Positions 733 through 23,982 of a stretch of 23,982 bases of DNA are shown piece by piece. The position numbers were made by a program, and so were the translations under genes. Each line of letters opens with the position of its first letter. The first letter of the stretch is position 1. Under the pieces are notes generated by a model. The model was not told the DNA's origin, made no database searches, and saw nothing but the letters and a program-made list of their open reading frames with translations. The stretch comes from Saccoglossus kowalevskii (taxonomy: Eukaryota; Hemichordata; Enteropneusta; Harrimaniidae), in contig NW_003155103.1 of assembly GCF_000003605.2 (NCBI RefSeq), positions 1-23,982 of the forward strand, read 5' to 3'.

Positions 733-744
733 CATATTAATATG
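733..744. repeat. 12-bp perfect palindrome from a G-to-T-type unit variant
   Basis: Where the usual ATTAATAGGG reads ATTAATATGG, the unit contains CATATTAATATG, which equals its own reverse complement. The same palindrome lies at 6860-6871, 10220-10231, 10727-10738, 12501-12512, 15954-15965, 19493-19504 and 21498-21509. Five of these (733, 10727, 12501, 15954, 19493) share the context of a GGAGTCATGTGTTATT unit before and GGGTCATATGC after, so they are copies of one event spread by HOR amplification. Confidence 0.75.
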
Positions 745-2456: not shown

Positions 2457-2463
2457 ATGCTAT

Positions 2464-2480
2464 TCTGTTGTATGCATAAT
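2464..2480. repeat. Isolated early 36-bp unit (TTGTATG insertion)
   Basis: Between TTCTG and CAT, where ordinary units read straight through, seven extra bases TTGTATG are present, creating an ATGCAT. Only three other such units occur before 9.1 kb (6464, 6502, 8133), whereas dozens occur after it. The neighbourhood resembles 8100-8160 and 22800-22840: in all three a GGGGCC unit and a CATATATTAATA unit precede the insertion and a CATAATAATAGGAGTC follows it. Confidence 0.8.
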
Positions 2481-2689
2481 AATAGGAGTCATATGTTATT
2501 CTGCATAATAATAGGGATCATATGCTATTCTGCATGTTAACAAGGGCCATACGCTATTCTGCATATTAATAGGAGTCATGTGCTATTGTGCATATTAAAA
2601 GGAGTCATATTATTCTGCATATTAATAGGGGTCGTATGCTATTCTGCATATTAATAGGAGTCATAAGCTATTCTGCATATTAATTGGGG

Positions 2690-3400
2690 TCATATGCTAT
2701 TCTGCATATTAATAGGAGTCGTATGCTATTCTGCATATTAATAGGAGTCATAAGCTATTCTGCATATTAATAGGGGTCATATGCTATTCTGCATATTAAT
2801 AGGGGCCATATGCTAATCTGCCTATATTAATAGGGGTCATATGCTATTCTGCATATCAATAGGGTTCATATGCTATTCTGCATATTAATAGGGGTCATAA
2901 GCTATTCTGCATATTAATAGGGGTCATATGCTATTCTGCATATTAATAGGGGCCATATGCTAATCTGCCTATATTAATAGGGGTCATATGCTATTCTGCA
3001 TATCAATAGATGTCATATGCTATTCTGCATATTAATAGGGGTCATATGCTATTCTGCATATTAATAGGGGCCATATGCTATTCTGCATATTAATAGGAGT
3101 CATATGCTATTCTGCATATTAATAGATATCATATGCTATTCTGCATATTAATAGGAGTCATATTCTATTCTGCATATTAATAGGAGTCATTATATTCTGC
3201 ATATTAATAGGAGACATGTGTTATTCTGCATAATAATAGGGGTCATATGCTATTCTGCATGTTAACAAGGGCCATATGCTATTCTGCATATTAATAGGAG
3301 TCATGTGCTATTGTGCATATTAAAAGGAGTCATATATTATTCTGCATATTAATAGGAGTCATATGCTATTCTGCATATTAATAGGAGTCATATGCTATTC
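2690..3400. repeat. Segment duplicated near the right end (22999-23709)
   Basis: Markers in this segment recur near the window end at one constant offset of 20309 bp: TCGTATG (2719 and 23028), the 31-bp CTAATCTGCC unit (2813; CTAATTTGCC at 23122), GGGTTC (2862 and 23171), and GTTAAC (3261 and 23570). A unit with AATAGATATCATATG near 3124 reads AATAGATGTC in the partner. After about 3400 the two continue in the same order, but the right copy is 58 bp (two units) shorter by the CATATTTATAGG unit (3691 against 23942). Confidence 0.85.
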
Positions 3401-3620
3401 TGCATATTAATAGAAGTCATATGCTATTCTGCATATTAATAGAGTCATATGCTATTCTGCATATTAATAGGAGTCATATGCTATTCTGCATATTAATACG
3501 GAGTCATATGCTATTCTGCATATTAATAGGAGTCATATGCTATTCTGCATATTAATAGGAGTCATATGCTATTCTGCATATTAATAGGAGTCATATGCTA
3601 TTCTGCATATTAATAGGAGT
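3350..3620. repeat. Homogeneous run of GGAG units
   Basis: About nine consecutive units here are nearly identical, all of the GGAGTCATATGC type, with single changes (AGAAGTC, one unit lacking a G, one with an extra C). The equivalent stretch after GTTAAC at 1571 is shorter: GTTAAC to the next GTTAAC measures 348 bp there (1571-1919) and 493 bp here (3261-3754), a difference of 145 bp, exactly five units. This indicates recent local expansion or contraction. Confidence 0.7.
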
Positions 3621-4474
3621 CATATTCTATTCTGCATATTAATAGGAGTCATGTGTTATTCTGCATAATAATAGTGGTCACATGCTATTCTGCATATTTA
3701 TAGGAGTCATATGCTATTCTGCATATTAATATTAGTCATATGCTATTATGCATGTTAACAAGGGCCATATGCTATTCTGCATATTAATAGGAGTCATATG
3801 CTATTCTGCATATTAATAGGGGTCATACGTTATTCTGCATATTAATAGGAGTCATATGCTATTCTGCATATTAATTGGAGCCATATGCTATTCTGGATAT
3901 TAATAGGAGTCATATTCTATTCTTGATATTAATAGGAGTCATAAGCTATTCTGCATATTAATAGGGGTCATATGCTATTCTGCATATTAATAGGGGCCAT
4001 ATGCTATTCTGCATATTAATAGGAGTCATATGCTATTCTGCATATTAATAGAAGTCATATGCTATTCTGCATATTAATAGGAGTCATATTCTATTCTGCA
4101 TATTAATAGGAGTCATTATATTCTGCATATTAATAGGAGACATGTGTTATTCTGCATAATAATAGGGGTCATATGCTATTCTGCATGTTAACAAGGGCCA
4201 TATACTATTCTGCATATTAATAGGAGTCATATGCTATTCTGCATATTAATAGGAGTCATATGCTATTCTGCATATTAAAAGGAGTCATATGCTATTTTGC
4301 ATATTAATAGGAGTCATATGCTATTCTGCATATTAATAGAAGTCATATGCTATTCTGCATATTAATAGGAGTCATATTCTATTCTGCATATTAATAGGAG
4401 TCATTTTATTCTGCATATTAATAGGAGACATGTGTTATTCTGCATAATAATAGGGGTCATATGCTATTCTGCAT

Positions 4475-4741
4475 GTTAACAAGGTCCATATGCTATTCTG
4501 CATATTAATAGGAGTCATGTGCTATTCTGCATATTAAAAGGAGTCATATATTATTCTGCATATTAATAGGGGTCATATGCTATTCTGTATATTAATAGGG
4601 GTCATATGCTATTCTGTATATTAATAGGGGTCATATGCTATTCTGCATATTAATAGGAGTCATATTCTATTCTGCATATTATTAGGAGACATGTGTTATT
4701 CTGCATAATAATAGGGGTCATATGCTATTCTGCATGTTAAC
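4475..4741. repeat. 261-bp GTTAAC-pair module, copy 1
   Basis: Two GTTAAC units start at 4475 and 4736, exactly 261 bp (9 x 29) apart. In order, the module holds AAGGTCC after the first GTTAAC, a CATGTGCTATTCTGC unit, a CATATTAAAAGGAG unit, CATATATTATT, CTGTATATT units, a CATATTCTATT unit, a CATATTATTAGGAGACATGTG unit and a CATAATAATAGG unit. The second GTTAAC is followed by AAGGGCCATACG. GTTAAC sits in an 8-bp palindrome, TGTTAACA. Confidence 0.85.
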
Positions 4742-5138
4742 AAGGGCCATACGCTATTCTGCATATTAATAGGAGTCATGTGCTATTGTGCATATTAAAA
4801 GGAGTCATATTATTCTGCATATTAATAGGGGTCATATGCTATTCTGTATATTAATAGGGGTCTTATGCTATTCTGCATATTAATAGGGGTCATATGCTAC
4901 TCTGCATGTCAATTGGGGACATATGCTATTCTGCATATTAATAGGAGTCATGTGCTATTCTGCATATTAAAAGGGTCATATGCTATTCTGTATATTAATA
5001 GGGGTCATATGCTATTCTGCATGTCAATTGGGGTCATATGCTATTCTGCATATTAATAGGAGTCGTATGCTATTCTGCATATTAATAGGAGACATGTGTT
5101 ATTCTGCATAATAATAGGGGTCATATGCTATTCTGCAT
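4475..5138. repeat. 664-bp tandem duplicate before 5139
   Basis: The distance from the GTTAAC pair at 4475/4736 to the pair at 5139/5400 is 664 bp. The second half of this copy (about 4742-5090) carries two CATGTCAATTGG units, at about 4907 and 5018. These replace the usual ATTAATAG stops with an open reading, which lets a short open frame of 63 codons run from 4865 to 5056. That frame translates the satellite itself and has no sign of being a gene. Confidence 0.75.
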
Positions 5139-6170
5139 GTTAACAAGGTCCATATGCTATTCTGCATATTAATAGGAGTCATGTGCTATTCTGCATATTA
5201 AAAGGAGTCATATATTATTCTGCATATTAATAGGGGTCATATGCTATTCTGTATATTAATAGGGGTCATATGCTATTCTGTATATTAATAGGGGTCATAT
5301 ACTATTCTGCATATTAATAGGAGTCATATTCTATTCTGCATATTATTAGGAGACATATGTTATTCTGCATAATAATAGGGATCATATGCTATTCTGCATG
5401 TTAACAAGGGCCATACGCTATTCTGCATATTAATAGGAGTCATGTGCTATTGTGCATATTAAAAGGAGTCATATTATTCTGCATATTAATAGGGGTCATA
5501 TGCTATTCTGTATATTAATAGGGGTCTTATGCTATTCTGCATATTAATAGGGGTCATATGCTACTCTGCATGTCAATTGGGGTCATATGCTATTCTGCAT
5601 ATTAATAGGAGTCGTATGCTATTCTGCATATTAATAGGAGTCATAAGCTATTCTGCATATTAATAGGGGTCATATGCTATTCTGCATATTAATAGGGGCC
5701 ATATGCTAATCTGCCTATATTAATAGGGGTCATATGCTAGTCTGCATATCAATAGGGTTCATATGCTATTCTGCATATTAATAGGGGTCATAAGCTACTC
5801 TGCATATTAATAGGGGTCATATGCTATTCTGCATATTAATAGGGGCCATATGCTAATCTGCCTATATTAATAGGGGTCATATGCTATTCTGCATATCAAT
5901 AGATGTCATATGCTATTCTGCATATTAATAGGGGTCATATGCTATTCTGCATATTAATAGGGGCCATATGCTCTTCTGCATATTAATAGGAGTCATATGC
6001 TATTCTGCATATTAATAGATATCATATGCTATTCTGCATACTAATAGGAGTCATATTCTATTCTGCATATTAATAGGAGTCATTATATTCTGCATATTAA
6101 TAGGAGACATGTGTTATTCTGCATAATAATAGGGGTCATATGCTATTCTGCATGTTAACAAGGGCCATAT
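5080..6170. repeat. 1.1-kb duplicate M1 (partner at 6947-8037)
   Basis: About 37 units recur 1867 bp downstream in the same order. Landmarks at the same 1867-bp offset are the first GTTAAC (5139 and 7006), the second (5400 and 7267), GGGTTC (5755 and 7622) and a third GTTAAC (6154 and 8021). Both copies share rare units: CTACTCTGCATGTCAATTGG, TCGTATG, two 31-bp CTAATCTGCC units, an ATAAGCTACTCTGC unit, AATAGATGTC and AATAGATATC. Differences are few (for example CTAGTCTGC here at about 5738, and CTCTTCTGC near 5970), so this is a recent segmental duplication. Confidence 0.88.
5139..5405. repeat. 261-bp GTTAAC-pair module, copy 2
   Basis: GTTAAC units start at 5139 and 5400, 261 bp apart, with the same internal order of variant units as at 4475. 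The first is followed by AAGGTCC and the second by AAGGGCCATACG. A private change is GAGACATATG in place of GAGACATGTG. Confidence 0.85.
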
Positions 6171-6946
6171 GCTATTCTGCATATTAATAGGAGTCATGTG
6201 TTATTCTGTATATTAATAGGGTCATATGCTATTCTGCATGTTAATAGGGGCCATATGCTATTCTACATATTAATAGGAGTCATATGCTATTCTGCATATT
6301 AATAGGAGTCATGTGTTATTCTGTATATTAATAGGGGTCATATGCTATTTTGCATATTAATAGGAGTCATATGCTATTCTGCATATTAATAGGAGTCATA
6401 TGCTATTCTGCATATTGATAGGAGTATAAGCTTATTCTGTATATAATAGGGATCATATGCTATTCTGTTGTATGCATATCAATAGGGCGTAATATGCTAT
6501 TCTGTTGTATGCATAATAATAGGGGTTATAAACTATTCTGCATATTAATAGGGGTCATATGCTATTCTGCATATTAATAGGGGTCATATGCTATTCTGCA
6601 TGTGAATAGGGGCCATATGCTACTCTTCATATTAATAGGGGTCATTTGCTATTGTGCATGTTAATAGGGGCCATGTGCTATTCTGCATAATAATAGAAGT
6701 CATATGCTATTCTGCATATTAATAGAAGTCATGTGCTATTCTGCATATTAAAAGGAGTCATATATTATTCTGCATATTAATAGGGGTCATATGCTATTCT
6801 GTATATTAATAGGGGTCATATTCTATTCTGCATATTAATAGGAGTCATGTGTTATTCTGCATATTAATATGGGTCATATGCTATTCTGCATATTAATAGG
6901 AGTCATATTCTATTCTGCATATTAATAGGAGTCATTATATTCTGCA
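6154..6946. repeat. Spacer between M1 and M2, with early 36-bp doublet
   Basis: No gene is present. After the GTTAAC at 6154 the sequence leaves the duplicated M order. It contains a short-indel patch (GGAGTATAAGC and CTGTATATAATAGG near 6420-6450), two 36-bp units (CTGTTGTATG at 6464 and 6502), a GGTTATAAAC unit, a CATGTGAATAGG unit at about 6600 followed by CTACTCTTCATATT, and the HOR landmark GCCATGTGCT at 6670. The 6410-6700 part is homologous to 10270-10570, where the same odd units follow in the same order. Confidence 0.75.
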
Positions 6947-8037
6947 TATTAATAGGAGACATGTGTTATTCTGCATAATAATAGGGGTCATATGCTATTC
7001 TGCATGTTAACAAGGTCCATATGCTATTCTGCATATTAATAGGAGTCATGTGCTATTCTGCATATTAAAAGGAGTCATATATTATTCTGCATATTAATAG
7101 GGGTCATATGCTATTCTGTATATTAATAGGGGTCATATGCTATTCTGTATATTAATAGGGGTCATATGCTATTCTGCATATTAATAGGAGTCATATTCTA
7201 TTCTGCATATTATTAGGAGACATGTGTTATTCTGCATAATAATAGGGATCATATGCTATTCTGCATGTTAACAAGGGCCATACGCTATTCTGCATATTAA
7301 TAGGAGTCATGTGCTATTGTGCATATTAAAAGGAGTCATATTATTCTGCATATTAATAGGGGTCATATGCTATTCTGTATATTAATTGGGGTCTTATGCT
7401 ATTCTGCATATTAATAGGGGTCATATGCTACTCTGCATGTCAATTGGGGTCATATGCTATTCTGCATATTAATAGGAGTCGTATGCTATTCTGCATATTA
7501 ATAGGAGTCATAAGCTATTCTGCATATTAATAGGGGTCATATGCTATTCTGCATATTAATAGGGGCCATATGCTAATCTGCCTATATTAATAGGGGTCAT
7601 ATGCTATTCTGCATATCAATAGGGTTCATATGCTATTCTGCATATTAATAGGGGTCATAAGCTACTCTGCATATTAATAGGGGTCATATGCTATTCTGCA
7701 TATTAATAGGGGCCATATGCTAATCTGCCTATATTAATAGGGGTCATATGCTATTCTGCATATCAATAGATGTCATATGCTATTCTGCATATTAATAGGG
7801 GTCATATGCTATTCTGCATATTAATAGGGGCCATATGCTATTCTGCATATTAATAGGAGTCATATGCTATTCTGCATATTAATAGATATCATATGCTATT
7901 CTGCATATTAATAGGACTCATATTCTATTCTGCATATTAATAGGAGTCATTATATTCTGCATATTAATAGGAGACATGTGTTATTCTGCATAATAATAGG
8001 GGTCATATGCTATTCTGCATGTTAACAAGGGTCACAT
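6947..8037. repeat. 1.1-kb duplicate M2 (partner at 5080-6170)
   Basis: This is the downstream partner of M1 at a constant 1867-bp offset through landmarks 7006, 7267, 7622 and 8021. Private differences include AATTGGGGTCTT at about 7386 and GGACTC near 7915. After the GTTAAC at 8021 the copy reads AAGGGTCACATG and departs from M1. Confidence 0.88.
7006..7272. repeat. 261-bp GTTAAC-pair module, copy 3
   Basis: GTTAAC units start at 7006 and 7267, 261 bp apart. Internal unit order is as at 4475 and 5139, including AAGGTCC after the first GTTAAC and the CATATTATTAGGAGACATGTG unit before the second. Confidence 0.85.
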
Positions 8038-9127
8038 GCTATTCTGCATATTAATAGGGGTCATATGCTATTCTGCATATTAATAGGGGCCATATGCTAT
8101 TCTGCATATATTAATAGGGGCCATATGCTATTCTGTTGTATGCATAATAATAGGAGTCATGTGCTATTCTGCATATTAATAGGAGTCATATGCTAATCTG
8201 CATATTAATAGGGGTCATATGCTATTCTGCATATTAATAGGGGTCATATGCTATTCTGCATATTAATAGGGGTCATATGCTATTCTGCATGTGAATAGGG
8301 GCCATATGCTACTCTTCATATTAATAGGGGTCATTTGCTATTGTGCATGTTAATAGGGGCCATGTGCTATTCTGCATAATAATAGAAGTCATATGCTATT
8401 CTGCATATTAATAGAAGTCATGTGCTATTCTGCATATTAAAAGGAGTCATATATTATTCTGCATATTAAAAGGAGTCATATATTATTCTGCATATTAATA
8501 GGGGTCATATGCTATTCTGTATATTAATAGGAGTCATGTGTTATTCTGCATGTTAACAAGGGTCATACGCTATTCTGCATATTAATAGGAGTCATGTGCT
8601 ATTGTGCATATTAAAAGGAGTCATATTATTCTGCATATTAATAGGGGTCATATGCTATTCTGTATATTAATAGGGGTCTTATGCTATTCTGCATATTAAT
8701 AGGGGTCATATGCTACTCTGCATGTCAATTGGGGTCATATGCTATTCTGCATATTAATAGGAGTCGTATGCTATTCTGCATATTAATAGGAGTCATAAGC
8801 TATTCTGCATATTAATAGGGGTCATATGCTATTCTGCATATTAATAGGGGCCATATGCTAATCTGCCTATATTAATAGGGGTCATATGCTATTTTGCATA
8901 TCAATAGTGTTCATATGCTATTCTGCATATTAATAGGGGTCATAAGCTATTCTGCATGTTAATAGGGGTCATATGCTATTCTGCATATTAATAGGGGCCA
9001 TATGCTAATCTGCCTATATTAATAGGGGTCATATGCTATTCTGCATATTAATAGATATCATATGCTATTCTGCATATTAATAGGGCTCATATGCTATTCT
9101 GCATATTAATAGGAGTCATATGATATT
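8038..9127. repeat. Transition segment of the array
   Basis: No gene is present. The segment joins pieces seen elsewhere: a 36-bp unit at 8133; a CATGTGAATAGG/CTACTCTTCATATT block at about 8291 with GCCATGTGCT at 8359; a duplicated CATATTAAAAGGAG unit (about 8430 and 8465); a GTTAAC at 8552 that lacks the usual partner 261 bp upstream; then a CTACTCTGCATGTCAATTGG unit and two 31-bp CTAATCTGCC units (about 8867 and 9004). The missing partner suggests a deletion just before 8552. Confidence 0.7.
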
Positions 9128-10130
9128 CTCTTGTATGCATAATAATGGTGGTCATATGCTGTTCTGCATATTGATAGGGGTCATAAGCTATTCTGCATAT
9201 TAATAGGGGTCATATGCTATTCTGCATATTAATCGGTGTCATATGCTATTCTGCATATTAATAGGGGCCATATGCTAATCTGCCTATATTAATAGGGGTC
9301 AGATGCTATTCTGCATATCAAAAGGGGTCATATACTATTCTGCATATTAATAGGGGTCATATGCTATTCTGCATATTAATAGGAGTCATATGATATTCTC
9401 TTGTATGCATAATAATAGTGGTCATATGCTGTTCTGCATATTGATAGGGGTATAAGCTATTCTGTATATTAATAGGGGTCATATGCTATTCTGTTGTATG
9501 CATATTAATAGGGGTCATATGCTATTCTGTTGTATGCATAATAATAGGGGTCATAAGCTATTCTGCATATTAATAGGGGTCATATGCTATTCTGCATATT
9601 AATAGGGGTCTTATGCTATTCTGCATATATTAATAGGGGCCATATGCTATTATGCATAATAATAATGGCCATATGCTAATTCTGCATATTGATAGGGGTC
9701 ATATACCATCTGTTGTATGCATATCAATAGGGGCCATATGCTATTCTGCATATTAATAGGGGTCATAAGCTATTCTGCATATTAATAGGGGTCATATGCT
9801 ATTCTGCATATTAATAGGGGCCATATGCTAATCTGCCTATATTAATAGGGGTCATATGCTATTCTGCATATTAATAGGGGTCATATGCTATTCTGCATAT
9901 TAATAGGAGTCATATGATATTCTCTTGTATGCATAATAATAGTGGTCATATGCTGTTCTGCATATTGATAGGGGTATAAGCTATTGTGTATATCAATAGG
10001 GGTCATATGCTATTCTGCATATTAATAGGGGTCATAATCTATTCTGCATATTAACCGGGGTCATATGCTATTCTGCATATTAATAAGGGCCATATGCTAT
10101 TCTGCATATTAATAGGAGTCATATGCTATT
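9128..10130. repeat. First cluster of CTCTTGTATG modules
   Basis: CTCTTGTATG units start at 9128, 9398 and 9922. The first two are 270 bp apart and the last two 524 bp apart; a 524-bp (or 523-bp) spacing returns at 15095-15619 and 18635-19158. The 9128 and 9398 units are followed by a CATATGCTGTTCTGC unit and a CATATTGATAGG unit, and the last module by the marker GCTATTGTGTATAT. A doublet of 36-bp units lies at 9491 and 9527, 36 bp apart. From here to about 22.3 kb GGGG units outnumber GGAG units. Confidence 0.8.
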
Positions 10131-10234
10131 CTGCATATTATATGGGTCGTATCCTATTCTGCTTATTAATATGGGACATATGCTATTCTACTTATTAATA
10201 GGAGTCATAAGCTATTCTGCATATTAATATGGGT

Positions 10235-10390
10235 CATATGCTATCTGTGTATGCATAATAATAGAGGTCATATTGCTGTCTGCATATGATAGGAGTATAA
10301 GTTATTCTTTATATTAATAGGGATCATATGTTATCTGTTGTATGCATATAATAGGAGTAATATGCTATTCTGTGTATGCATAATAATAGG
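10235..10390. repeat. Degenerate patch of units with small deletions
   Basis: Several successive units have lost one to three bases: CTATCTGTGTATGC for CTATTCTGTTGTATGC, CATATGATAGG for CATATTGATAGG, CATATAATAGG for CATATTAATAGG, and TTATCTGTTG. The same set of odd units is more intact at 6415-6540, so this is a damaged copy of that block. Either real decay or a locally poor consensus sequence would produce this pattern. Confidence 0.7.
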
Positions 10391-10536
10391 GGTTATAAAC
10401 TATTCTGCATATTAATAGGGGTCCTATGCTATTCTGCATATTAATTGGGGTCATATGCTATTCTGCATGTGAATAGGGGCCATATGCTACTCTTCATATT
10501 AATAGGGGTCATATGCTATTCTGCATGTTAATATGG
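10391..10536. repeat. Lead-in to HOR copy 0
   Basis: This stretch holds a GGTTATAAAC unit, a CATGTGAATAGG unit (GTGAATAGG at 10469), then CTACTCTTCATATT and a CATGTTAATATGGGCC unit, ending at the HOR landmark GCCATGTGCT. The same order occurs at 6600-6670 and 8290-8359. Confidence 0.7.
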
Positions 10537-12310
10537 GCCATGTGCTATTCTGCATATTAATAGGAGTCATATGCTATTCTGCATATTAATAGAAGTCATG
10601 TGCTATTCTGCATATTAAAAGGAGTCATATATTATTCTGCATATTAATAGGGGTCATATGCTATTCTGTATATTAATAGGGGTCATATTCTATTCTGCAT
10701 ATTAATAGGAGTCATGTGTTATTCTGCATATTAATATGGGTCATATGCTATTTTGCATATTAATAGGAGTCATATGCTATTCTGCATATTAATAGGAGTC
10801 ATATGCTATTCTGCATATTAATAGAAGTCATATGCTATTCTGCATATTAATAGGAGTCATATTCTATTCTGCATAATAATAGGAGTCATTATATTCTGCA
10901 TATTAATAGGAGACATGTGTTATTCTGCATAATAATAGGGGTCATATGCTATTCTGCATGTTAACAAGGGCCATATGCTATTCTGCATATTAATAGGAGT
11001 AATGTGCTATTCTGCATATTAAAAGGAGTCATATATTATTCTGCATATTAATAGGGGTCATATGCTATTCTGTATATTAATAGGGGTCATATGCTATTCT
11101 GTATATTAATAGGGGTCATATGCTATTCTGCATATTAATAGGAGTCGTATTCTATTCTGCATATTATTAGGAGACATGTGTTATTCTGCATAATAATAGG
11201 GGTCATATGCTATTCTGCATGTTAACAAGGGCCATACGCTATTCTGCATATTAATAGGAGTCATGTGCTATTGTGCATATTAAAAGGAGTCATATTATTC
11301 TGCATATTAATAGGGGTCATATGCTATTCTGCATATTAATAGGAGTCGTATGCTATTCTGCATATTAATAGGAGTCATAAGCTATTCTGCATATTAATAG
11401 GGGTCATATGCTATTCTGCATATTAATAGGGGCCATATGCTAATCTGCCTATATTAATAGGGGTCATATGCTATTCTGCATATCAATAGGGTTCATATGC
11501 TATTCTGCATATTAATAGGGGTCATAAGCTATTCTGCATGTTAATAGGGGTCATATGCTATTCTGCATATTAATAGGGGCCATATGCTAATCTGCCTATA
11601 TTAATAGGGGTCATATGCTATTCTGCATATCAATAGGGGTCATATGCTATTCTGCATATTAATAGGGCTCATATGCTATTCTGCATATTAATAGGAGTCA
11701 TATGATATTCTCTTGTATGCATAATAATGGTGGTCATATGCTGGTCTGCATATTGATAGGGGTATAAGCTATTCTGTATATTAATAGGGGTCATATGCTA
11801 TTCTGTTGTATGCATATTAATAGGGGTCATATGCTATTCTGTTGTATGCATAATAATAGGGGTCATAAGCTATTCTGCATATTACTAGGGGTCATATGCT
11901 ATTCTGCATATTAATAGGGCCTTATGCTATTCTGCATATATTAATATGGGCCATATGCTATTATGCATATTAATAATGGCCATATGCTATTCTGCATATT
12001 AATAGGGGTCATAAGCTATTCTGCATATTAATAGGGGTCATATGCTATTCTGCATATTAATAGGGGCCATATGCTAATCTGCCTATATTAAAAGGGGTCA
12101 TATGCTATTCTGCATATTAATAGGGGTCATATGCTATTCTGAATATTAATAGAGTCATATGATATTCTCTTGTATGCATAATAATAGTGTCATATGCTGT
12201 TCTGCATATTGATAGGGGTATAACGTATTGTGTATATTAATAGGGGTCATATGCTATTCTGTTGTATGCATATTAATAGGGGTCATATGCTATTCTGCAT
12301 GTTAATAGGG
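10537..12310. repeat. Short higher-order repeat, copy 0 (1774 bp)
   Basis: The copy begins at landmark GCCATGTGCT and ends where the next begins. Its order is the landmark, GTTAAC pair at 10960/11221, TCGTATG and ATAAGC units, 31-bp CTAATCTGCC units, a GGGTTC unit, CTCTTGTATG units at 11710 and 12167, and the marker GTATTGTGTATAT. It has the same order as the 3.5-kb copies that follow but lacks the 879- and 732-bp modules that make those longer. The landmark-to-GTTAAC distance is 423 bp, as in copy 2 and unlike copies 1 and 3. Confidence 0.82.
10960..11226. repeat. 261-bp GTTAAC-pair module, copy 4
   Basis: GTTAAC units start at 10960 and 11221, 261 bp apart. The first is followed by AAGGGCC rather than AAGGTCC, and this is true of all later copies. 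A private change is GGAGTAATGTG after the first GTTAAC, and GGAGTCGTATTC inside. Confidence 0.85.
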
Positions 12311-12675
12311 GCCATGTGCTATTCTGCGTATTAATATGAGTCATATGCTATTCTGCATATTAATAGAAGTCATGTGCTATTCTGCATATTGAAAGGAGTC
12401 ATATATTATTCTGCATATTAATAGGGGTCATATGCTATTCTGTATATTAATAGGGGTCATATTCTATTCTGCATATTAATAGGAGTCATGTGTTATTCTG
12501 CATATTAATATGGGTCATATGCTATTTTGCATATTAATAGGAGTCATATGCTATTCTGCATATTAATAGGAGTCATATTCTATTCTGCATATTAATAGGA
12601 GTCATTATATTCTGCATATTAATAGGAGACATGTGTTATTCTGCATAATAATAGGGGTCATATGCTATTCTGCAT

Positions 12676-12942
12676 GTTAACAAGGGCCATATGCTATTCT
12701 GCATATTAATAGGAGTCATGTGCTATTCTGCATATTAATAGGAGTCATATATTATTCTGCATATTAATAGGGGTCATATGCTATTCTGTATATTAATAGG
12801 GGTCATATGCTATTCTGTATATTAATAGGGGTCAAATGCTATTCTGCATATTAATAGGAGTCATATTCTATTCTGCATATTAATAGGAGACATGTGTTAT
12901 TCTGCATAATAATAGGGGTCATATGCTATTCTGCATGTTAAC
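12676..12942. repeat. 261-bp GTTAAC-pair module, copy 5
   Basis: GTTAAC units start at 12676 and 12937, 261 bp apart. Here and in the next two copies the unit before the second GTTAAC reads CATATTAATAGGAGAC instead of CATATTATTAGGAGAC, and a GTCAAATGC unit is present. Confidence 0.85.
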
Positions 12943-13483
12943 AAGGGCCATACGCTATTCTGCATATTAATAGGAGTCATGTGCTATTGTGCATATTAAA
13001 AGGAGTCATATTATTCTGCATATTAATAGGGGTCATATGGTATTCTGTATATTAATAGGGGTCTTATGCTATTCTGCATATTAATAGGGGTCATATGCTA
13101 CTCTGCATGTCAATTGGGGTCATATGCTATTCTGCATATTAATAGGAGTCGTATGCTATTCTGCATATTAATAGGAGTCATAAGCTATTCTGCATATTAA
13201 TAGGGGTCATATGCTATTGTGCATATTAATAGGGGCCATATGCTAATCTGCCTATATTAATAGGGGTAATATGCTATTCTGCATGTCAATAGGGTTCATA
13301 TGCTATTCTGCATATTAATAGGGGTCATAAGCTATTCTGCATATTAATAGGGGTCATCTGCTATTCTGCATATTAATTGGGGCCATATGCTAATCTGCCT
13401 ATATTAATAGGGGTGATATGCTATTCTGCATATCAATAGGGGTCATATGCTATTCTGCATATTAATAGGAGTCATATGATATT

Positions 13484-14362
13484 CTCTTGTATGCATAATA
13501 ATAGTGGTCATATGCTGTTCTGCATATTGATAGGGGTATAAGCTATTCTGTATATTAATAGGGGTCATATGCTATTCTGTTGTATGCATATTAATAGGGG
13601 TCATATGCTATTCTGTTGTATGCATAATAATAGGGGTCATAAGCTATTCTGCATATTACTAGGGGTCATATGCTATTCTGCATATTAATAGGGCCTTATG
13701 CTATTCTGCATATATTAATAGGGGCCATATGCTATTATGCATATTAATAATGGCCATATGCTATTCTGCATATTAATAGGGGTCATATACCATCTGTTGT
13801 ATGCATATTAATAGGGGCCATATGCTATTCTGCATATTAATAGGGGCCAAATGCTATTCTGCATATTAATAGGGGCCATATGTTATTCTGTTGTATGCAT
13901 ATCAATAGGGGCCATATGCTATTCTGCATATTAATAGGGACCATATGCTATTCTGCATATTAATAGGGGTCATATGCTATTCTGCATATCAATAGGGGTC
14001 ATATGCTATTCTGCATATTAATAGGGGTCTTAAGCTATTCTGCATATTAATCGGGGTCATATGCTATTCTGCATATTAATAGGGGCCATATGCTAATCTG
14101 CCTATATTAATAGGGGTCATATGCTATTCTGCATGTCAATAGGGTTCATATGCTATTCTGCATATTAATAGAGGTCATAAGCTATTCTGCATATTAAGAG
14201 GGGTCATCTGCTATTATGCATATTAATAGGGGCCATATGCTAATCTGCCTATATTAATAGGGGTCATATGCTATTCTGCATATCAATAGGGGTCATATGC
14301 TATTCTGCATATTAATAGGGGTCATATGCTATTCTGCATATTAATAGGAGTGATATGATATT
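13484..14362. repeat. 879-bp inner module P of HOR copy 1
   Basis: The module starts at a CTCTTGTATG unit followed by CATATGCTGTTCTGC, CATATTGATAGG and GGTATAAGC units, then a 36-bp doublet at about 13577/13613, an ATTACTAGG unit, CATATATTAATA, AATAATGGCC, ATACCATCTG, and 31-bp CTAATCTGCC units. The next module (14363-15094) repeats this order with one block of 147 bp less. The same 879-bp spacing is found in copy 2 (17024-17903). Confidence 0.85.
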
Positions 14363-15094
14363 CTCTTGTATGCATAATAATAGTGGTCATATGCTGTTCT
14401 GCATATTGATAGGGGTATAAGCTATTCTGTATATTAATAGGGGTCATATGCTATTCTGTTGTATGCATATTAATAGGGGTCATATGCTATTCTGTTGCAT
14501 GCATAATAATAGGGGTCATAAGCTATTCTGCATATTACTAGGGGTCATATGCTATTCTGCATATTAATAAGGCCTTATGCTATTCTGCATATATTAATAG
14601 GGGCCATATGCTATTATGCATATTAATAATGGCCATATGCTATTCTGCATATTAATAGGGGTCATATACCATCTGTTGTATTCATATTAATAGGGGCCAT
14701 ATGCTATTCTGCATATTAATAGGGGCCAAATGCTATTCTGCATATTAATAGGGGCCATATGTTATTCTGTTGTATGCATATCAATAGGCGCCATATGCTA
14801 TTCTGCATCTTAATAGGGACCATATGCTATTCTGCATATTAATAGGGGTCATATTATATTCTGCATATCAATAGGGGTCATATGCTATTCTGCATATTAA
14901 TAGGGGTCATAAGCTATTCTGCATATTAATCGGGGTCATATGCTATTCTGCATATTAATAGGGGCCATATGCTAATCTGCCTATATTAATAGGGGTCATA
15001 TGCTATTCTGCATATCAATAGGGGTCATATACTATTCTGCATATTAATAGGGGTCATATGCTATTCTGCATATTAATAGGAGTCATATGATATT
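14363..15094. repeat. 732-bp inner module Q of HOR copy 1
   Basis: Q has the same opening and order as P. Q-specific marks are CTGTTGCATGC instead of CTGTTGTATGC in the 36-bp doublet, AATAAGGCCTTATG, GGCGCC at 14787 and CATATTATATTCTGC. It is 147 bp shorter than P by one block around the CATGTCAATAGGGTTC and AAGAGGGGTC units. P and Q are therefore tandem paralogues within the HOR. The copy-2 equivalent is 17903-18634, also 732 bp. Confidence 0.85.
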
Positions 15095-15763
15095 CTCTTG
15101 TATGCATAATAATAGTGGTCATATGCTGTTCTGCATATTGATAGGGGTATAAGCTATTCTGTATATTAATAGGGGTCATATGCTATTCTGTTGTATGCAT
15201 ATTAATAGGGGTCATATGCTATTCTGTTGTATGCATAATAATAGGGGTCATAAGCTATTCTGCATATTAATAGGGGTCATATGCTATTCTGCATATTAAT
15301 AGGGTCTTATGCTATTTCTGCATATAATAATAGGGGCCATATGCTATTATGCATAATAATAATGGCCATATGCTATTCTGCATATTGATAGGGGTCATAT
15401 ACCATCTGTTGTATGCATATCAATAGGGGCCCAAATGCTATTCTGCATATTAATAGGGGTCATAAGCTATTCTGCATATTAATAGGGGTCATATGCTATT
15501 CTGCATATTAATAGGGGCCATATGCTAATCTGCCTATATTAATAGGGGTCATATGCTATTCTGCATATTAATAGGGGTCATATGCTATTCTGCATATTAA
15601 TAGGAGTCATATGATATTCTCTTGTATGCATAATAATAGTGGTAATATGCTGTTCTGCATATTGATAGGGGTATAAGCTATTGTGTATATTAATAGGGGT
15701 CATATGCTATTCTGTTGTATGCATATTAATAGGGGTCATATGCTATTCTGCATGTTAATAGGG

Positions 15764-18700
15764 GCCATGTGCTATTCTGCGTATTAATATGAGTCATATG
15801 CTATTCTGCATATTAATAGAAGTCATGTGCTATTCTGCATATTGAACGGAGTCATATATTATTCTGCATATTAATAGGGGTCATATGCTATTCTGCATAT
15901 TAATAGGGGTCATATTCTATTCTGCATATTAATAGGAGTCATGTGTTATTCTGCATATTAATATGGGTCATATGCTATTTTACATATTAATAGGAGTCAT
16001 ATGCTATTCTGCTTATTAATAGGAGTCATATGCTATTCTGCATATTAATAGAAGTCATATGCTATTCTGCATATTAATAGGAGTCATATTCTATTCTGCA
16101 TATTAATAGGAGTCATTATATTCTGCATATTAATAGGAGACATGTGTTATTCTGCATAATAATAGGGGTCATATGCTATTCTGCATGTTAACAAGGGCCA
16201 TATGCTATTCTGCATATTAATAGGAGTCATGTGCTATTCTGCATATTAAAAGGAGTCATATATTATTCTGCATATTAAGAGGGGTCATATGCTATTCTGT
16301 ATATTAATAGGGGTCATATGCAATTCTGTATATTAATAGGGGTCAAATGCTATTCTGCATATTAATAGGAGTCATATTCTATTCTGCATATTAATAGGAG
16401 ACATGTGTTATTCTGCATAATAATAGGGGTCATATGCTATTCTGCATGTTAACAAGGGCCATACGCTATTCTGCATATTAATAGGAGTCATGTGCTATTG
16501 TGCATATTAAAAGGAGTCATATTATTCTGCATATTAATAGGGGTCATATGCTATTCTGTATATTAATAGGGGTCTTATGCTATTCTGCATATTAATAGGG
16601 GTCATATGCAACTCTGCATGTCAATTGGGGTCATATGCTATTCTGCATATTAATAGGAGTCGTATGCTATTCTGCATATTAATAGGAGTCATAAGCTATT
16701 CTGCATATTAATAGGGGTCATATGCTATTGTGCATATTAATAGGGGCCATATGCTAATTTGCCTATATTAATAGGGGTAATATGCTATTCTGCATGTCAA
16801 TAGGGTTCATATGCTATTCTGCATATTAATAGGGGTAATAAGCTATTCTGCATATTAATAGGGGTCATCTGCTATTCTGCATATTAATAGGGGCCATATG
16901 CTAATCTGCCTATATTAATAGGGGTGATATGCTATTCTGCATATCAATAGGGGTCATATGCTATTCTGCATATTAATAGGGGTCATATGCTATTCTGCAT
17001 ATTAATAGGAGTCATATGATATTCTCTTGTATGCATAATAATAGTGGTCATATGCTGTTCTGCATATTGATAGGGGTATAAGCTATTCTGTATATTAATA
17101 GGGGTCATATGCTATTCTGTTGTATGCTTATTAATAGGGGTCATATGCTATTCTGTTGTATGCATAATAATAGGGGTCATAAGCTATTCTGCATATTACT
17201 AGGGGTCATATGCTATTCTGCATATTAATAGGGCCTTATGCTATTCTGCATATATTAATAGGGGCCATATGCTATTATGCATATTAATAATGGCCATATG
17301 CTATTCTGCATATTAATAGGGGTCATATACCATCTGTTGTATGCATATTAATAGGGGCCATATGCTATTCTGCATATTAATAGGGGCCAAATGCTATTCT
17401 GCATATTAATAGGGGCCATATGTTATTCTGTTGTATGCATATCAATAGGGGCCATATGCTATTCTGCATATTAATAGGGACCATATGCTATTCTGCATAT
17501 TAATAGGGGTCATATGCTATTCTGCATATCAATAGGGGTCATATGCTATTCTGCATATTAATAGGGGTCATAAGCTATTCTGCATATTAATCGGGGTCAT
17601 ATGCTATTCTGCATATTAATAGGGGCCATATGCTAATCTGCCTATATTAATAGGGGTCATATGCTATTCTGCATGTCAATAGGGTTCATATGCTATTCTG
17701 CATATTAATAGGGGTCATAAGCTATTCTGCATATTAAGAGGGGTCATCTGCTATTATGCATATTAATAGGGGCCATATGCTAATCTGCCTATATTAATAG
17801 GGGTCATATGCTATTCTGCATATCAATAGGGGTCATATGCTATTCTGCATATTAATAGGGGTCATATGCTATTCTGCATATTAATAGGAGTCATATGATA
17901 TTCTTTTGTATGCATAATAATAGTGGTCATATGCTGTTCTGCATATTGATAGGGGTATAAGCTATTCTGTATATTAATAGGGGTCATATGCTATTCTGTT
18001 GTATGCATATTAATAGGGGTCATATGCTATTCTGTTGCATGCATAATAATAGGGGTCATAAGCTATTCTGCATATTACTAGGGGTCATATGCTATTCTGC
18101 ATATTAATAAGGCCTTATGCTATTCTGCATATATTAATAGGGGCCATATGCTATTATGCATATTAATAATGGCCATATGCTATTCTGCATATTAATAGGG
18201 GTCATATACCATCTGTTGTATGCATATTAATAGGGGCCATATGCTATTCTGCATATTAATAGGGGCCAAATGCTATTCTTCATATTAATAGGGGCCATAT
18301 GTTATTCTGTTGTATGCATATCAATAGGCGCCATATGCTATTCTGCATATTAATAGGGACCATATGCTATTCTGCATATTAATAGGGGTCATATTATATT
18401 CTGCATATCAATAGGGGTCATATGCTATTCTGCATATTAATAGGGGTCATAAGCTATTCTGCATATTAATCGGGGTCATATGCTATTCTGCATATTAATA
18501 GGGGCCATATGCTAATCTGCCTATATTAATAGGGGTCATATGCTATTCTGCATATCAATAGGGGTCATATACTATTCTGCATATTAATAGGGGTCATATG
18601 CTATTCTGCATATTAATAGGAGTCATATGATATTCTCTTGTATGCATAATAATAGTGGTCATATGCTGTTCTGCATATTGATAGGGGTATAAGCTATTCT

Positions 18701-19302
18701 GTATATTAATAGGGGTCATATGCTATTCTGTTGTATGCATATTAATAGGGGTCATATGCTATTCTGTTGTATGCATAATAATAGGGGTCATAAGCTATTC
18801 TGCATATTAATAGGGGTCATATGCTATTCTGCATATTAATAGGGGCCTTATGCTATTCTGCATATATTAATAGGGGCCATATGCTATTATGCATAATAAT
18901 AATGGCCATATGCTATTCTGCATATTGATAGGGGTCATATACCATCTGTTGTATGCATATCAATAGGGGCCATATGCTATTCTGCATATTAATAGGGGTC
19001 ATAAGCTATTCTGCATATTAATAGGGGTCATATGCTATTCTGCATATTAATAGGGGCCATATGCTAATCTGCCTATATTAATAGGGGTCATATGCTATTC
19101 TGCATATTAATAGGGGTCATATGCTATTCTGCATATTAATAGGAGTCATATGATATTCTCTTGTATGCATAATAATAGTGGTCATATGCTGTTCTGCATA
19201 TTGATAGGGGTATAAGCTATTGTGTATATTAATAGGGGTCATATGCTATTCTGTTGTATGCATATTAATAGGGGTCATATGCTATTCTGCATGTTAATAG
19301 GG
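15764..19302. repeat. 3.5-kb higher-order repeat, copy 2 (3539 bp)
   Basis: The same marker order as copy 1 applies: GCGTA at 15779, GTTAAC pair at 16187/16448, CTCTTGTATG-type units at 17024, 17903 (reads CTTTTG) , 18635 and 19158, and GGCGCC at 18327. Module lengths are 879, 732 and 523 bp. It is the longest copy because it holds both the 58-bp block near 16020-16080 (marked by an AGAAGTC unit) and the extra 29-bp unit before 17024. Private changes include CTGCTTATTAATAGG and CATATGCAATTCTG. Confidence 0.92.
16187..16453. repeat. 261-bp GTTAAC-pair module, copy 6
   Basis: GTTAAC units start at 16187 and 16448, 261 bp apart, with a private CATATTAAGAGGGG unit and a CATATGCAATTC unit inside. 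Spacing to the same module in copies 1 and 3 is 3511 and 3481 bp. Confidence 0.85.
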
Positions 19303-19667
19303 GCCATGTGCTATTCTGCGTATTAATATGAGTCATATGCTATTCTGCATATTAATAGAAGTCATGTGCTATTCTGCATATTGAAAGGAGTCATATATTA
19401 TTCTGCATATTAATAGGGGTCATATGCTATTCTGTATATTAATAGGGGTCATATTCTATTCTGCATATTAATAGGAGTCATGTGTTATTCTGCATATTAA
19501 TATGGGTCATATGCTATTTTGCATATTAATAGGAGTCATATGCTATTCTGCATATTAATAGGAGTCATATTCTATTCTGCATATTAATAGGAGTCATTAT
19601 ATTCTGCATATTAATAGGAGACATGTGTTATTCTGCATAATAATAGGGGTCATATGCTATTCTGCAT

Positions 19668-19934
19668 GTTAACAAGGGCCATATGCTATTCTGCATATTA
19701 ATAGGAGTCATGTGCTATTCTGCATATTAAAAGGAGTCATATATTATTCTGCATATTAATAGGGGTCATATGCTATTCTGTATATTAATAGGGGTCATAT
19801 GCTATTCTGTATATTAATAGGGGTCAAATGCTATTCTGCATATTAATAGGAGTCATATTCTATTCTGCATATTAATAGGAGACATGTGTTATTCTGCATA
19901 ATAATAGGGGTCATATGCTATTCTGCATGTTAAC
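19668..19934. repeat. 261-bp GTTAAC-pair module, copy 7
   Basis: GTTAAC units start at 19668 and 19929, 261 bp apart, with the same order as copies 5 and 6 including GTCAAATGC. This is the last intact pair; the GTTAAC at 21213 has no partner 261 bp upstream because the array enters the HOR part-way through the module there. Confidence 0.85.
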
Positions 19935-20674
19935 AAGGGCCATACGCTATTCTGCATATTAATAGGAGTCATGTGCTATTGTGCATATTAAAAGGAGTCA
20001 TATTATTCTGCATATTAATAGGGGACATATGCTATTCTGTATATTAATAGGAGTCTTATGCTATTCTGCATATTAATAGGGGTCATATGCTACTCTGCAT
20101 GTCAATTGGGGTCATATGCTATTCTGCATATTAATAGGAGTCGTATGCTATTCTGCATATTAATAGGAGTCATAAGCTATTCTGCATATTAATAGGGGTC
20201 ATATGCTATTGTGCATATTAATAGGGGCCATATGCTAATCTGCCTATATTAATAGGGGTAATATGCTATTCTGCATGTCAATAGGGTTCATATGCTATTC
20301 TGCATATTAATAGGGGTCATAAGCTATTCTGCATATTAATAGGGGTCATCTGCTATTCTGCATATTAATAGGGGCCATATGCTAATCTGCCTATATTAAT
20401 AGGGGTGATATGCTATTCTGCATATCAATAGGGGTCATATGCTATTCTGCATATTAATAGGGGTCATATGCTATTCTGCATATTAATAGGAGTCATATGA
20501 TATTCTCTTGTATGCATAATAATAGGGGTCATATGCTATTCTGCATATTAATAGGGGTCATATGCTATTCTGCATATTAATAGGAGTCATATGATATTCT
20601 CTTGTATGCATAATAATAGGGGTCATATGCTATTCTGTTGTATGCATATTAATAGGGGTCATATGCTATTCTGT

Positions 20675-20800
20675 TGTATGCATAATATAGGGGTCATAAG
20701 CTATTCTGCATATTACTAGGGGTCATATGCTATTCTGCATATAATAGGGCCTTATGCTATTCTGCATATATAATAGGGGCCCATATGCTATTATGCATAA
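20675..20800. repeat. Patch of units with short deletions in copy 3
   Basis: Successive units read CATAATATAGG, CATATAATAGGGCC and CATATATAATAGGGGCCC, each one to three bases off the forms seen in copies 1 and 2 (CATAATAATAGG, CATATTAATAGGGCC, CATATATTAATAGGGGCC). The patch sits at the point where copy 3 is rearranged. Confidence 0.75.
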
Positions 20801-21060
20801 TAATAATGACCATATGCTATTCTGCATATTGATAGGGGTCATATACCATCTGTTGTATGCATATCAATAGGGGCCATATGCTATTCTGCATATTAATAGG
20901 GGTCATAAGCTATTCTGCATATTAATAGGGGTCATATGCTATTCTGCATATTAATAGGGGCCATATGCTAATCTGCCTATATTAATAGGGGTCATATGCT
21001 ATTCTGCATATCAATAGGGGTCATATGCTATTCTGCATATTAATAGGGGTCATATGCTAT

Positions 21061-22343
21061 TCTGCATATTAATAGGGGTCATATGCTATTCTGTATATTA
21101 ATAGGGGTCAAATGCTATTCTGCATATTAATAGGAGTCATATTCTATTCTGCATATTAATAGGAGACATGTGTTATTCTGCATAATAATAGGGGTCATAT
21201 GCTATTCTGCATGTTAACAAGGGCCATACGCTATTCTGCATATTAATAGGAGTCATGTGCTATTGTGCATATTAAAAGGAGTCATATTATTCTGCATATT
21301 AATAGGGGTCATATGCTATTCTGTATATTAATAGGGGTCCTATGCTATTCTGCATATTAATAGGGGTCATATGCTACTCTGCATGTCAATTGGGGTCATA
21401 TGCTATTCTGCATATTAATAGGAGTCGTATGCTATTCTGCATATTAATAGGAGTCATAAGCTATTCTGCATATTAATAGGGGTCATATGCTATTGTGCAT
21501 ATTAATATGGGCCATATGCTAATCTGCCTATATTAATAGGGGTCATATGCTATTCTGCATGTCAATAGGGTTCATATGCTATTCTGCATATTAATAGGGG
21601 TCATAAGCTATTCTGCATATTAAGAGGGGTCATCTGCTATTATGCATATTAATAGGAGCCATATGCTAATCTGCCTATATTAATAGGGGTCATATGCTAT
21701 TCTGCATATCAATAGGGGTCATATGCTATTCTGCATATTAATAGGGGTCATATGCTATTCTGCATATTAATAGGAGTCATATGATATTCTCTTGTATGCA
21801 TAATAATAGTGGTCATATGCTGTTCTGCATATTGATAGGGGTATAAGCTATTCTGTATATTAATAGGGGTCATATGCTATTCTGTTGTATGCATATTAAT
21901 AGGGGTCATATGCTATTCTGTTGCATGCATAATAATAGGGGTCATAAGCTATTCTGCATATTACTAGGGGTCATATGCTATTCTGCATATTAATAAGGCC
22001 TTATGCTATTCTGCATATATTAATAGGGGCCATATGCTATTATGCATATTAATAATGGCCATATGCTATTCTGCATATTAATAGGGGTCATATACCATCT
22101 GTTGTATGCATATTAATAGGGGCCATATGCTATTCTGCATATTAATAGGGGCCAAATGCTATTCTGCATATTAATAGGGGCCATATGTTATTCTGTTGTA
22201 TGCATATCACTAGGCGCCATATGCTATTCTGCATATTAATAGGGACCATATGCAATTCTGCATATTAATAGGGGTCATATTATATTCTGCATATCAATAG
22301 GGGTCATATGCTATTCTGCATATTAATAGGGGTCATAAGCTAT
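21061..22343. repeat. Mosaic partial higher-order repeat, copy 4
   Basis: The array re-enters HOR order at the GTCAAATGC unit (about 21107), passes the GTTAAC at 21213, GGGTTC at 21568 and CTCTTGTATG at 21789; the GTTAAC-to-GGGTTC (355 bp) and GTTAAC-to-CTCTTG (576 bp) distances equal those of copies 2 and 3. From the AAGAGGGGTC unit (about 21623) onward its marks are of module Q and the end of P (CTGTTGCATGC, AATAAGGCCTTATG, GGCGCC at 22213), not of the P start expected there. It therefore combines two paralogous positions of the HOR, with the switch near 21500-21600. It ends at about 22343, where GGAG units resume. Confidence 0.82.
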
Positions 22344-22980
22344 TCTGCATGTTAATAGGAGTCATATTCTATTCTGCATATTAATAGGAGTCATATGCTA
22401 TTCTGCATATTAATAGGAGACATGTGTTATTCTGCATAATAATAGGGGTCATATGCTATTCTGCATGTTAACAAGGGTCATATGCTATTCTGCATATTAA
22501 TAGGAGTCATGTGCTATTCTGCATATTAAAAGGAGTCATATATTATTCTACATATTAATAGGGGTCATATGCTATTCTGCATATTAATAGGGGTCATATG
22601 CTATTCTGCATATTAATAGGGTCATATGCTATTCTGCATGTTAATAGGGGCCATATGCTATTCTGCATATTAATAGGAGTCATATGCTATTCTGCATATT
22701 AATAGGGGTCATATGCTATTCTGCATATTAATAGGGGTCATATGCTATTCTGCATATTAATAGGGGCCATATGCTATTCTGCATATATTAATAGGGGCCA
22801 TATGCTATTCTGTTGTATGCATAATAATAGGAGTCATGTGCTATTCTGCATATTAATAGGAGTCATGTGCTATTCTGTATATAAAAGGAGTCATATATCT
22901 GCATATAATAGGGGTCATATGCTATTCTGTATATAATAGGGGTCTATGCTATTCTGCATATAATAGGGGTCATATGCTAC
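22344..22980. repeat. Junction segment after the HOR domain
   Basis: No gene is present. GGAG units and the GAGACATGTG, GTTAAC (22467) and AAAAGGAG markers of the left part return, followed by a CATGTTAATAGGGGCC unit as at about 6240 and a 36-bp unit at 22810 in the context seen at 8133 and 2464. A 64-codon open frame at 22742-22936 is satellite sequence that stays open only because of small indels, and is not a gene. Confidence 0.75.
22870..22965. repeat. Second patch of units with short deletions
   Basis: Five adjacent units carry deletions of one to several bases: CTGTATATAAAAGG, CATATATCTGC, CATATAATAGG (twice) and GGGTCTATGC. Comparable intact units occur in the same order at about 5190-5560 and 7060-7430. 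The concentration in under 100 bp, with clean units on both sides, is unusual for this array. Confidence 0.75.
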
Positions 22981-22998
22981 TCTGCATGTCAATTGGGG

Positions 22999-23982
22999 TC
23001 ATATGCTATTCTGCATATTAATTGGAGTCGTATGCTATTCTGCATATTAATAGGAGTCATAAGCTATTCTGCATATTAATAGGGGTCATATGCTATTCTG
23101 CATATTAATAGGGGCCATATGCTAATTTGCCTATATTAATAGGGGTCATATGCTATTCTGCATATCAATAGGGTTCATATGCTATTCTGCATATTAATAG
23201 GGGTCATAAGCTATTCTGCATATTAATAGGGGTCATATGCTATTCTGCATATTAATAGGGGCCATATGCTAATCTGCCTATATTAATAGGGGTCATATGC
23301 TATTCTGCATATCAATAGATGTCATATGCTATTCTGCATATTAATAGGGGTCATATGCTATTCTGCATATTAATAGGGGCCATATGCTATTCTGCATATT
23401 AATAGGAGTCATATGCTATTCTGCATATTAATAGATGTCATATGCTATTCTGCATATTAATAGGAGTCATATTCTATTCTGCATATTAATAGGAGTCATT
23501 ATATTCTGCATATTAATAGGAGACATGTGTTATTCTGCATAATAATAGGGGTCATATGCTATTCTGCATGTTAACAAGGGCCATATGCTATTCTGCATAT
23601 TAATAGGAGTCATGTGCTATTGTGCATATTAAAAGGAGTCATATATTATTCTGCATATTAATAGGAGTCCTATGCTATTCTGCATATTAATAGGAGTCAT
23701 ATGCTATTCTGCATATTAATAGAAGTCATATGCTATTCTGCATATTAATAGGAGACATATGCTATTCTGCATATTAATAGGAGTCATATGCTATTCTGCA
23801 TATTAATAGGAGTCATATGCTATTCTGCATATTAATAGGAGTCATATGCTATTCTGCATATTAATAGGAGTCATATTCTATTCTGCATATTAATAGGAGT
23901 CATGTGTTATTCAGCATAATAATAGGGGTCACATGCTATTCTGCATATTTATAGGAGTCATATGCTATTCTGCATATTATGA
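22999..23982. repeat. Right-end segment matching 2690-3720
   Basis: From 22999 to about 23709 this follows 2690-3400 at a constant 20309-bp offset (TCGTATG 23028, CTAATTTGCC 23122, GGGTTC 23171, GTTAAC 23570). It then runs through seven or eight similar GGAG units and reaches CATATTTATAGG at 23942, now at offset 20251, two units short of the left copy. Private changes include TTCAGC near 23910 and GGAGTCCTATG at about 23665. The window ends inside a unit, so the array continues. Confidence 0.85.

What the first reader, a model, noticed from the sequence alone, without database searches (positions are those of the whole stretch)
12311..19302. Two complete 3.5-kb higher-order repeats built from about 120 units of 29 bp
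Landmarks recur in identical order and at almost constant spacing: GTTAAC pair (12676/12937, 16187/16448, 19668/19929), CTCTTGTATG units (13484, 14363, 15095, 15619 against 17024, 17903, 18635, 19158), GGCGCC (14787, 18327). Copy lengths are 3453 and 3539 bp. HOR organisation is well known for primate alpha satellite (171-bp monomers). A HOR of this many very short monomers is much less commonly described, to my knowledge.
Basis: partly seen in the sequence, partly recalled or inferred. Interest (0 to 1): 0.75.

Follow-up and report, generated by a model that had tools for sequence, protein, structure and literature searches.

The report
Repeat array with 3.5-kb internal duplication
A long stretch of non-coding 29-letter DNA repeats, probably from an acorn worm, contains a 3.5-kb block copied in tandem two to three times, which is how repeat arrays ordinarily grow and not a new kind of structure.

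Summary
The whole window is one satellite array of about 814 units of 29 bp. Segment 12311-15763 aligns with 15764-19302 at 96.8% (3428 matches, 23 mismatches, 90 gap positions; 99.3% without gaps). Arrays with shuffled unit order give 83.6% on average and at most 84.9% in 40 trials. The copies hold 114 and 117 units. A third, more diverged copy follows at about 19303-23378, and part of the block precedes copy 1. Shorter sub-repeats are nested inside the block.

The rarity claim does not hold. HORs of 3.36 and 3.6 kb are published for the 5-bp human GAATG satellite, and irregular 1.6 and 2.5-kb HORs for a 61-bp repeat (PMC2588610). The 3.5-kb period is also not a fixed property of this satellite: the two other contigs found to carry it show other long periods.

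Best explanation: a neutral satellite locus whose latest growth included tandem duplication of ~118-unit blocks by unequal exchange. The mitochondrial contig of the assembly matches what is published for Saccoglossus kowalevskii, so the source is probably an acorn worm. Low interest.

The parts
1..23982 (+). Satellite array, about 814 head-to-tail units, consensus CATATTAATAGGGGTCATATGCTATTCTG (29 bp), units found on the + strand only; fills the whole contig, no flanks, no ORF of 100 aa
   Evidence: TRF 812.4 copies of period 29, positions 2-23979; wraparound decomposition into 814 units, 613 of them exactly 29 bp; 29-mer with up to 3 mismatches 684 forward, 0 reverse; 0 ORFs of 100 aa or more; window is the whole contig C4433
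12311..15763 (+). Long-block copy 1, 3453 bp, 114 units
   Evidence: Alignment to copy 2: 3428 matches, 23 mismatches; unit count
15764..19302 (+). Long-block copy 2, 3539 bp, 117 units; has 58 bp and 29 bp (3 units) more than copy 1
19303..23378 (+). Long-block copy 3, diverged, with insertions of up to 317 bp; end approximate
   Evidence: Semi-global alignment to copy 2: 3350 matches, 105 mismatches, 97.0% of aligned bases; the same scoring gives 92.1% for the stretch before copy 1. Third GTTAAC pair at 19668/19929 and third GGCGCC at 22213; 137 units in this interval
11479..12310 (+). Partial earlier copy: matches the end of the block (14864 to about 15763) at offset 3385-3453
   Evidence: 97.7-98.3% of aligned bases over three consecutive pieces of about 300 alignment columns
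13484..15618 (+). Nested sub-repeats in copy 1 of 879, 732 and 524 bp (13484-14362, 14363-15094, 15095-15618); the same set lies in copy 2 (17024-17902, 17903-18634, 18635-19157)
   Evidence: Over aligned bases: sub-repeats within a copy 98.3-98.6% (copy 1) and 98.5-99.0% (copy 2), with 147 to 358 gap positions because their lengths differ; the same sub-repeat between copies 99.4-99.5%, with 0 to 3 gap positions

Best explanation
It is an ordinary non-coding satellite array of 29-bp units. Shown: the array, the two 99.3%-identical blocks of about 118 units, the diverged third copy, nested shorter duplications, and insertions or deletions of whole units between copies. Inferred: the array grows and shrinks by unequal exchange between misaligned sister chromatids (or by a replication-based equivalent). 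Shorter blocks (about 0.5-0.9 kb) were duplicated first, then a block of about 3.5 kb was duplicated in tandem, and later exchanges added or removed units inside single copies. The long period marks recent local duplications in this stretch of the array, with no evidence that its length is selected.
For: Block copies are 96.8% alike with gaps (99.3% without) while shuffled arrays reach at most 84.9%. The two larger differences between copies 1 and 2 are exactly 58 and 29 bp. Many other shared offsets coexist in the window (6992, 1867, 3481, 4765, 879, 3886 bp). Nested sub-repeats are less alike than the same sub-repeat in the neighbouring copy, which orders the events. The two other contigs with this satellite have different dominant offsets. 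A simple model of random tandem duplication, deletion and mutation gave long preferred offsets, different each time, in 12 of 12 runs, against a top count of 0-2 in 3 shuffles of the observed units (one parameter set, chosen by me).
Against: No reads, no second individual and no flanking DNA were available, so exchange is not observed directly. The simulation shows feasibility only. Copy 1 aligns with 97.3% of aligned bases to C444 (2289-6458 of its reverse complement) and 95.1% to C3456 (4040-8087), with 761 and 724 gap positions (gaps are cheap in that scoring and no background was computed for it), so a related long block may be shared across the array; that weakly favours a more stable higher-order unit than I suppose.
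Confidence: 0.85

Rival explanations
1. A true, regular higher-order repeat kept by selection, for example a centromeric array in which the ~3.5-kb block is the homogenised unit.
For: Blocks are far more alike than neighbouring units. The satellite (29-mer with up to 3 mismatches) occurs only in three contigs that hold nothing else, as expected for an unassembled heterochromatic locus.
Against: Two full copies plus one diverged copy, of lengths 3453, 3539 and about 4076 bp; other contigs show other periods. No match to the recalled core of the CENP-B box with up to 1 mismatch (such boxes are, from recall, not required outside mammals). Only about 53.7 kb is assembled and nothing links it to a centromere.
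Confidence: 0.07
2. Assembly artefact: one block was duplicated by the assembler, or reads from different places of the array were joined.
For: Three contigs made of array alone with no flanks are typical of unresolved repeats; the window is a whole contig.
Against: Copies 1 and 2 differ by 23 substitutions spread along the block and by unit-length indels, so they are not one sequence written twice; long offsets also appear in the two other contigs. Not tested with reads.
Confidence: 0.06
3. Rolling-circle amplification: blocks of the array were excised as circles, copied and re-inserted, giving tandem copies of one block. This overlaps with the 'replication-based equivalent' of the best explanation, so the odds do not add up to one.
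For: Would also give tandem near-identical blocks of arbitrary length (established knowledge, no call).
Against: Expected to give one dominant exact length per event; the window shows several coexisting offsets and nested duplications. Sequence alone cannot separate this from unequal exchange.
Confidence: 0.1

Closest known systems
Human GAATG satellite (HSat3) HORs, including DYZ1 (PMC2588610 section 6; PMC4022460 passages)
   Same: Very short monomer (5 bp) organised into long, highly homologous blocks of 3360 and 3600 bp
   Different: There the blocks run over about 60 and 100 kb of sequenced array; here two full copies and one diverged copy, and other contigs have other periods
61-bp VNTR of Xp22.33 with irregular HORs of 1.6 and 2.5 kb (PMC2588610)
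   Same: Minisatellite-size unit, 18-kb array, irregular long periods in a complex arrangement: the closest match in form among those I read
   Different: Different unit length and organism; sequences were not compared
Alpha satellite HORs of primates (as described in PMC2588610, passages)
   Same: Units within a block diverged, blocks alike
   Different: 171-bp monomers, large homogeneous arrays at centromeres, chromosome-specific HORs; none of that shown here

Membership tests
Satellite DNA (tandemly repeated, non-coding) | Head-to-tail repeats of one unit over kilobases | tested here: met
   812.4 copies of period 29 over 2-23979
Satellite DNA (tandemly repeated, non-coding) | No coding capacity | tested here: met
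   0 ORFs of at least 100 aa in six frames, open ends included
Satellite DNA (tandemly repeated, non-coding) | Heterochromatic location | not testable with these tools
   All three contigs are array only; no chromosome or chromatin data
Higher-order repeat (HOR) | Blocks of several monomers much more alike than the monomers inside a block | tested here: met
   Blocks 96.8% with gaps, 99.3% without; shuffle null 83.6%; for copy 1 unit identity 0.950 at offset 118 against 0.846 for all unit pairs
Higher-order repeat (HOR) | Regular tandem reiteration of a block of constant length over the array | tested here: not met
   Lengths 3453, 3539 and about 4076 bp; other dominant offsets in C444 and C3456
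Alpha-satellite-type centromeric HOR | CENP-B box or centromere chromatin | tested here: inconclusive
   0 matches to the recalled CENP-B box core with up to 1 mismatch; chromatin not testable

The most novel reading that the evidence does not exclude
The three array contigs are pieces of one large single-locus heterochromatic array of the acorn worm (centromeric or on one special chromosome), in which a ~118-unit block is a true, homogenising higher-order unit: a case of HOR formation from minisatellite-size units in a hemichordate.
Probability: 0.08. Interest if true: 0.4.

Novelty: new member of a known kind. Interest (0 to 1): 0.15.

Why it matters
It is a clean small example of multi-scale duplication in a satellite array (29 bp, about 0.5-0.9 kb, about 3.5 kb), useful for modelling how arrays grow. 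If long reads showed a regular block over a whole locus, it would give a non-primate case for testing how higher-order units arise. As it stands it confirms a described behaviour of satellite DNA.

Tried and rejected
Relatives elsewhere: exact consensus patterns found nothing in viral contigs or in prokaryote genome contigs; neither collection is where an animal satellite would be expected. Six 14-mers of the unit occur in no paper of the library. No paper held all of 'higher-order repeat', '29-bp', 'satellite DNA' and 'tandem'. One search found 218 papers with two of six terms and listed 12, none with a 29-bp phrase; the other 206 were not seen, so it settles nothing. Searches gave listings only, from which nothing was used.

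A DNA search of the own genome with 301 bases was answered but not scored because of too many candidates; exact and near-exact patterns answered the question instead.

Organism: I first took the mitochondrial contig for that of a fish and searched and read fish papers. Rejected: AGA occurs in frame inside ND1, ND2 and ND5 (one codon each) and AGG in none of the nine genes counted, which speaks against the vertebrate code. A lancelet was considered and set aside: the passages on lancelet gene order describe no COX1 inversion.

The script stopped with an error after the copy 1/copy 2 result; the rest was rerun. The C444 alignment at offset 2114 collapsed onto itself and is discarded. The comparison of 8701-12310 with copy 1 (92.1% of aligned bases, many gaps) shows no clean earlier full copy. 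In C3456 an alignment at 6.37-6.71 kb offset gives 95.2% of aligned bases with 821 gap positions, patchy (pieces 0.871-1.0); the same scoring gives 92.1% for the stretch just named, so this is only modestly above background and I do not lean on it. Inverted repeats in copy 1 are only 70-82% complementary (10 pairs); I gave them no role.

Full report
WHAT THE WINDOW IS. The window is the whole of contig C4433 (23,982 bp) of an assembly of 572,110,611 bases in 4830 contigs. It is one tandem array: TRF gives 812.4 copies of a 29-bp unit over positions 2-23979. My decomposition gives 814 units, 613 of exactly 29 bp and 55 of 35-38 bp; the 7-bp stretch TTGTATG occurs 55 times. The 29-mer with up to 3 mismatches is found 684 times on the + strand and never on the - strand. 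There is no ORF of 100 aa.

CHECK OF THE CLAIM. Copies 12311-15763 and 15764-19302 align with 3428 matches, 23 mismatches and 90 gap positions: 96.8%, or 99.3% without gaps. The gaps are 58 bp, 29 bp and three single bases. Shuffling the order of the units gives 83.6% on average and 84.9% at most in 40 trials. In 60 random segment pairs the median is 83.5%, and the top two, 92.9% and 87.3%, lie near the same offset. In a grid of 120 segment pairs, three exceed 0.90, all at the 3450-bp offset inside the repeat. All but one of the listed landmarks are exact: CTCTTGTATG at 17903 carries one substitution.

EXTENT. The long alignment is not limited to two copies: it runs from 11479 to 22347 with the offset rising from 3385 to 3886 bp. 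A third copy lies at about 19303-23378 (3350 matches, 105 mismatches, insertions up to 317 bp against copy 2; 97.0% of aligned bases, where the same scoring gives 92.1% for the stretch before copy 1). The tail of an earlier copy lies at 11479-12310. Inside the block are sub-repeats of 879, 732 and 524 bp. Within a copy these are 98.3-99.0% alike over aligned bases, with 147-358 gap positions; the same sub-repeat in copies 1 and 2 is 99.4-99.5% alike. The sub-repeats are thus older than the block duplication (inference). Neighbouring units are no more alike (0.853) than any two units (0.846), but units 118 apart, counted from copy 1, are 0.950 alike.

ELSEWHERE IN THE GENOME. The 29-mer with up to 3 mismatches occurs 1125 times forward and 424 times reverse in the whole assembly. 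These numbers equal exactly the 684 + 441 forward matches counted in C4433 and C3456 and the 424 reverse matches in C444. Two exact patterns agree: 115 of 115 (59 and 33 counted, 23 listed for C444) and 41 of 41. At this stringency the satellite is confined to three contigs, 23,982 + 15,002 + 14,721 = 53,705 bp, all filled by the array with no flanks. More diverged relatives were not searched for, and the assembly may be incomplete. In the two other contigs the dominant offsets differ: 4228, 2114 and 2085 bp in C444; 8360, 2027 and 6405 bp in C3456. So 3.5 kb is a local feature. Against this, copy 1 can be aligned, with 761 and 724 gap positions, to about 4.2 kb of C444 and 4.0 kb of C3456 at 97.3% and 95.1% of aligned bases, so the order of units may be partly shared across the array; I computed no background for that scoring.

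SOURCE. The mitochondrial contig C4830 (17,037 bp) carries COX1 on the strand opposite to ATP6, COX3, ND4, ND5, CYTB, ND2, ND1 and COX2 (ND6 too is on that strand), and ND2 before ND1 (Pfam names them except ND2, which matches only Proton_antipo_M and is named by its place). AGA stands in frame inside ND1, ND2 and ND5, AGG is absent from the nine genes counted, and tRNA-Lys has anticodon TTT. PMC3121625 (passages) states that S. kowalevskii differs from Balanoglossus by inversion of COX1 and transposition of either ND1 or ND2, with AGA = Ser, AGG missing and tRNA-Lys UUU. The source is thus probably Saccoglossus kowalevskii or a near relative; I compared no sequence with a named record. The array contigs have no flanks, so contamination by another organism is not excluded.

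MECHANISM. Best reading: a neutral satellite growing by unequal exchange. Whole-unit indels, coexisting offsets, nested duplications and different long periods in different pieces all fit. A simple random duplication-deletion-mutation model gave long preferred offsets in 12 of 12 runs, each with its own value; 3 shuffles of the observed units gave a top count of 0-2. Exchange itself is inferred.

COMPARISON. Long higher-order blocks in short-unit satellites are in print: HORs of 3360 and 3600 bp in GAATG arrays, ~5.8 kb in HSATII, irregular 1.6 and 2.5 kb in a 61-bp VNTR (PMC2588610 section 6); 3.6-kb DYZ1 and 1.77-kb HSat2 units (PMC4022460 passages). The present array resembles the 61-bp VNTR most. 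As a strict HOR it fails on regularity. I found no description of this satellite in the paper library by unit sequence or by the four terms; the library lacks most subscription papers, and one search listed only 12 of 218 papers.

VERDICT. Observation confirmed; interpretation partly supported; ordinary kind of structure in a sequence that I did not find described.

Noticed in passing
L025, L026 (contig C4830 of the same assembly, 17,037 bp): Mitochondrial genome with COX1 on the opposite strand (its coding-strand GC skew is +0.18 against -0.33 for the contig's + strand), ND2 before ND1, AGA in frame and AGG absent from nine genes counted; this agrees with what PMC3121625 (passages) says of Saccoglossus kowalevskii and points to the likely source.
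   Followed up: yes
window, mainly 9000-22900: Units lengthened to 35-38 bp (55 of 814 units; 39 are 36 bp) and the 7-bp stretch TTGTATG (55 sites, 2468 to 22813) are concentrated in the right-hand two thirds; only three of the 55 lengthened units start before 8000.
   Followed up: partly
window 2819-3127 and 23128-23436: An exact repeat of 309 bp lies 20,309 bp apart: the right end of the window resembles the left part, so the array seems to return to another sequence type after the 3.5-kb block region (alignment 2705-3721 with 23014-23972).
   Followed up: no
L022 and L023 (contig C3456): The same satellite with long offsets near 6.4 and 8.4 kb, patchy, plus locally homogenised runs of identical neighbouring units (offset 29 has 622 exact 60-mer pairs).
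   Followed up: partly
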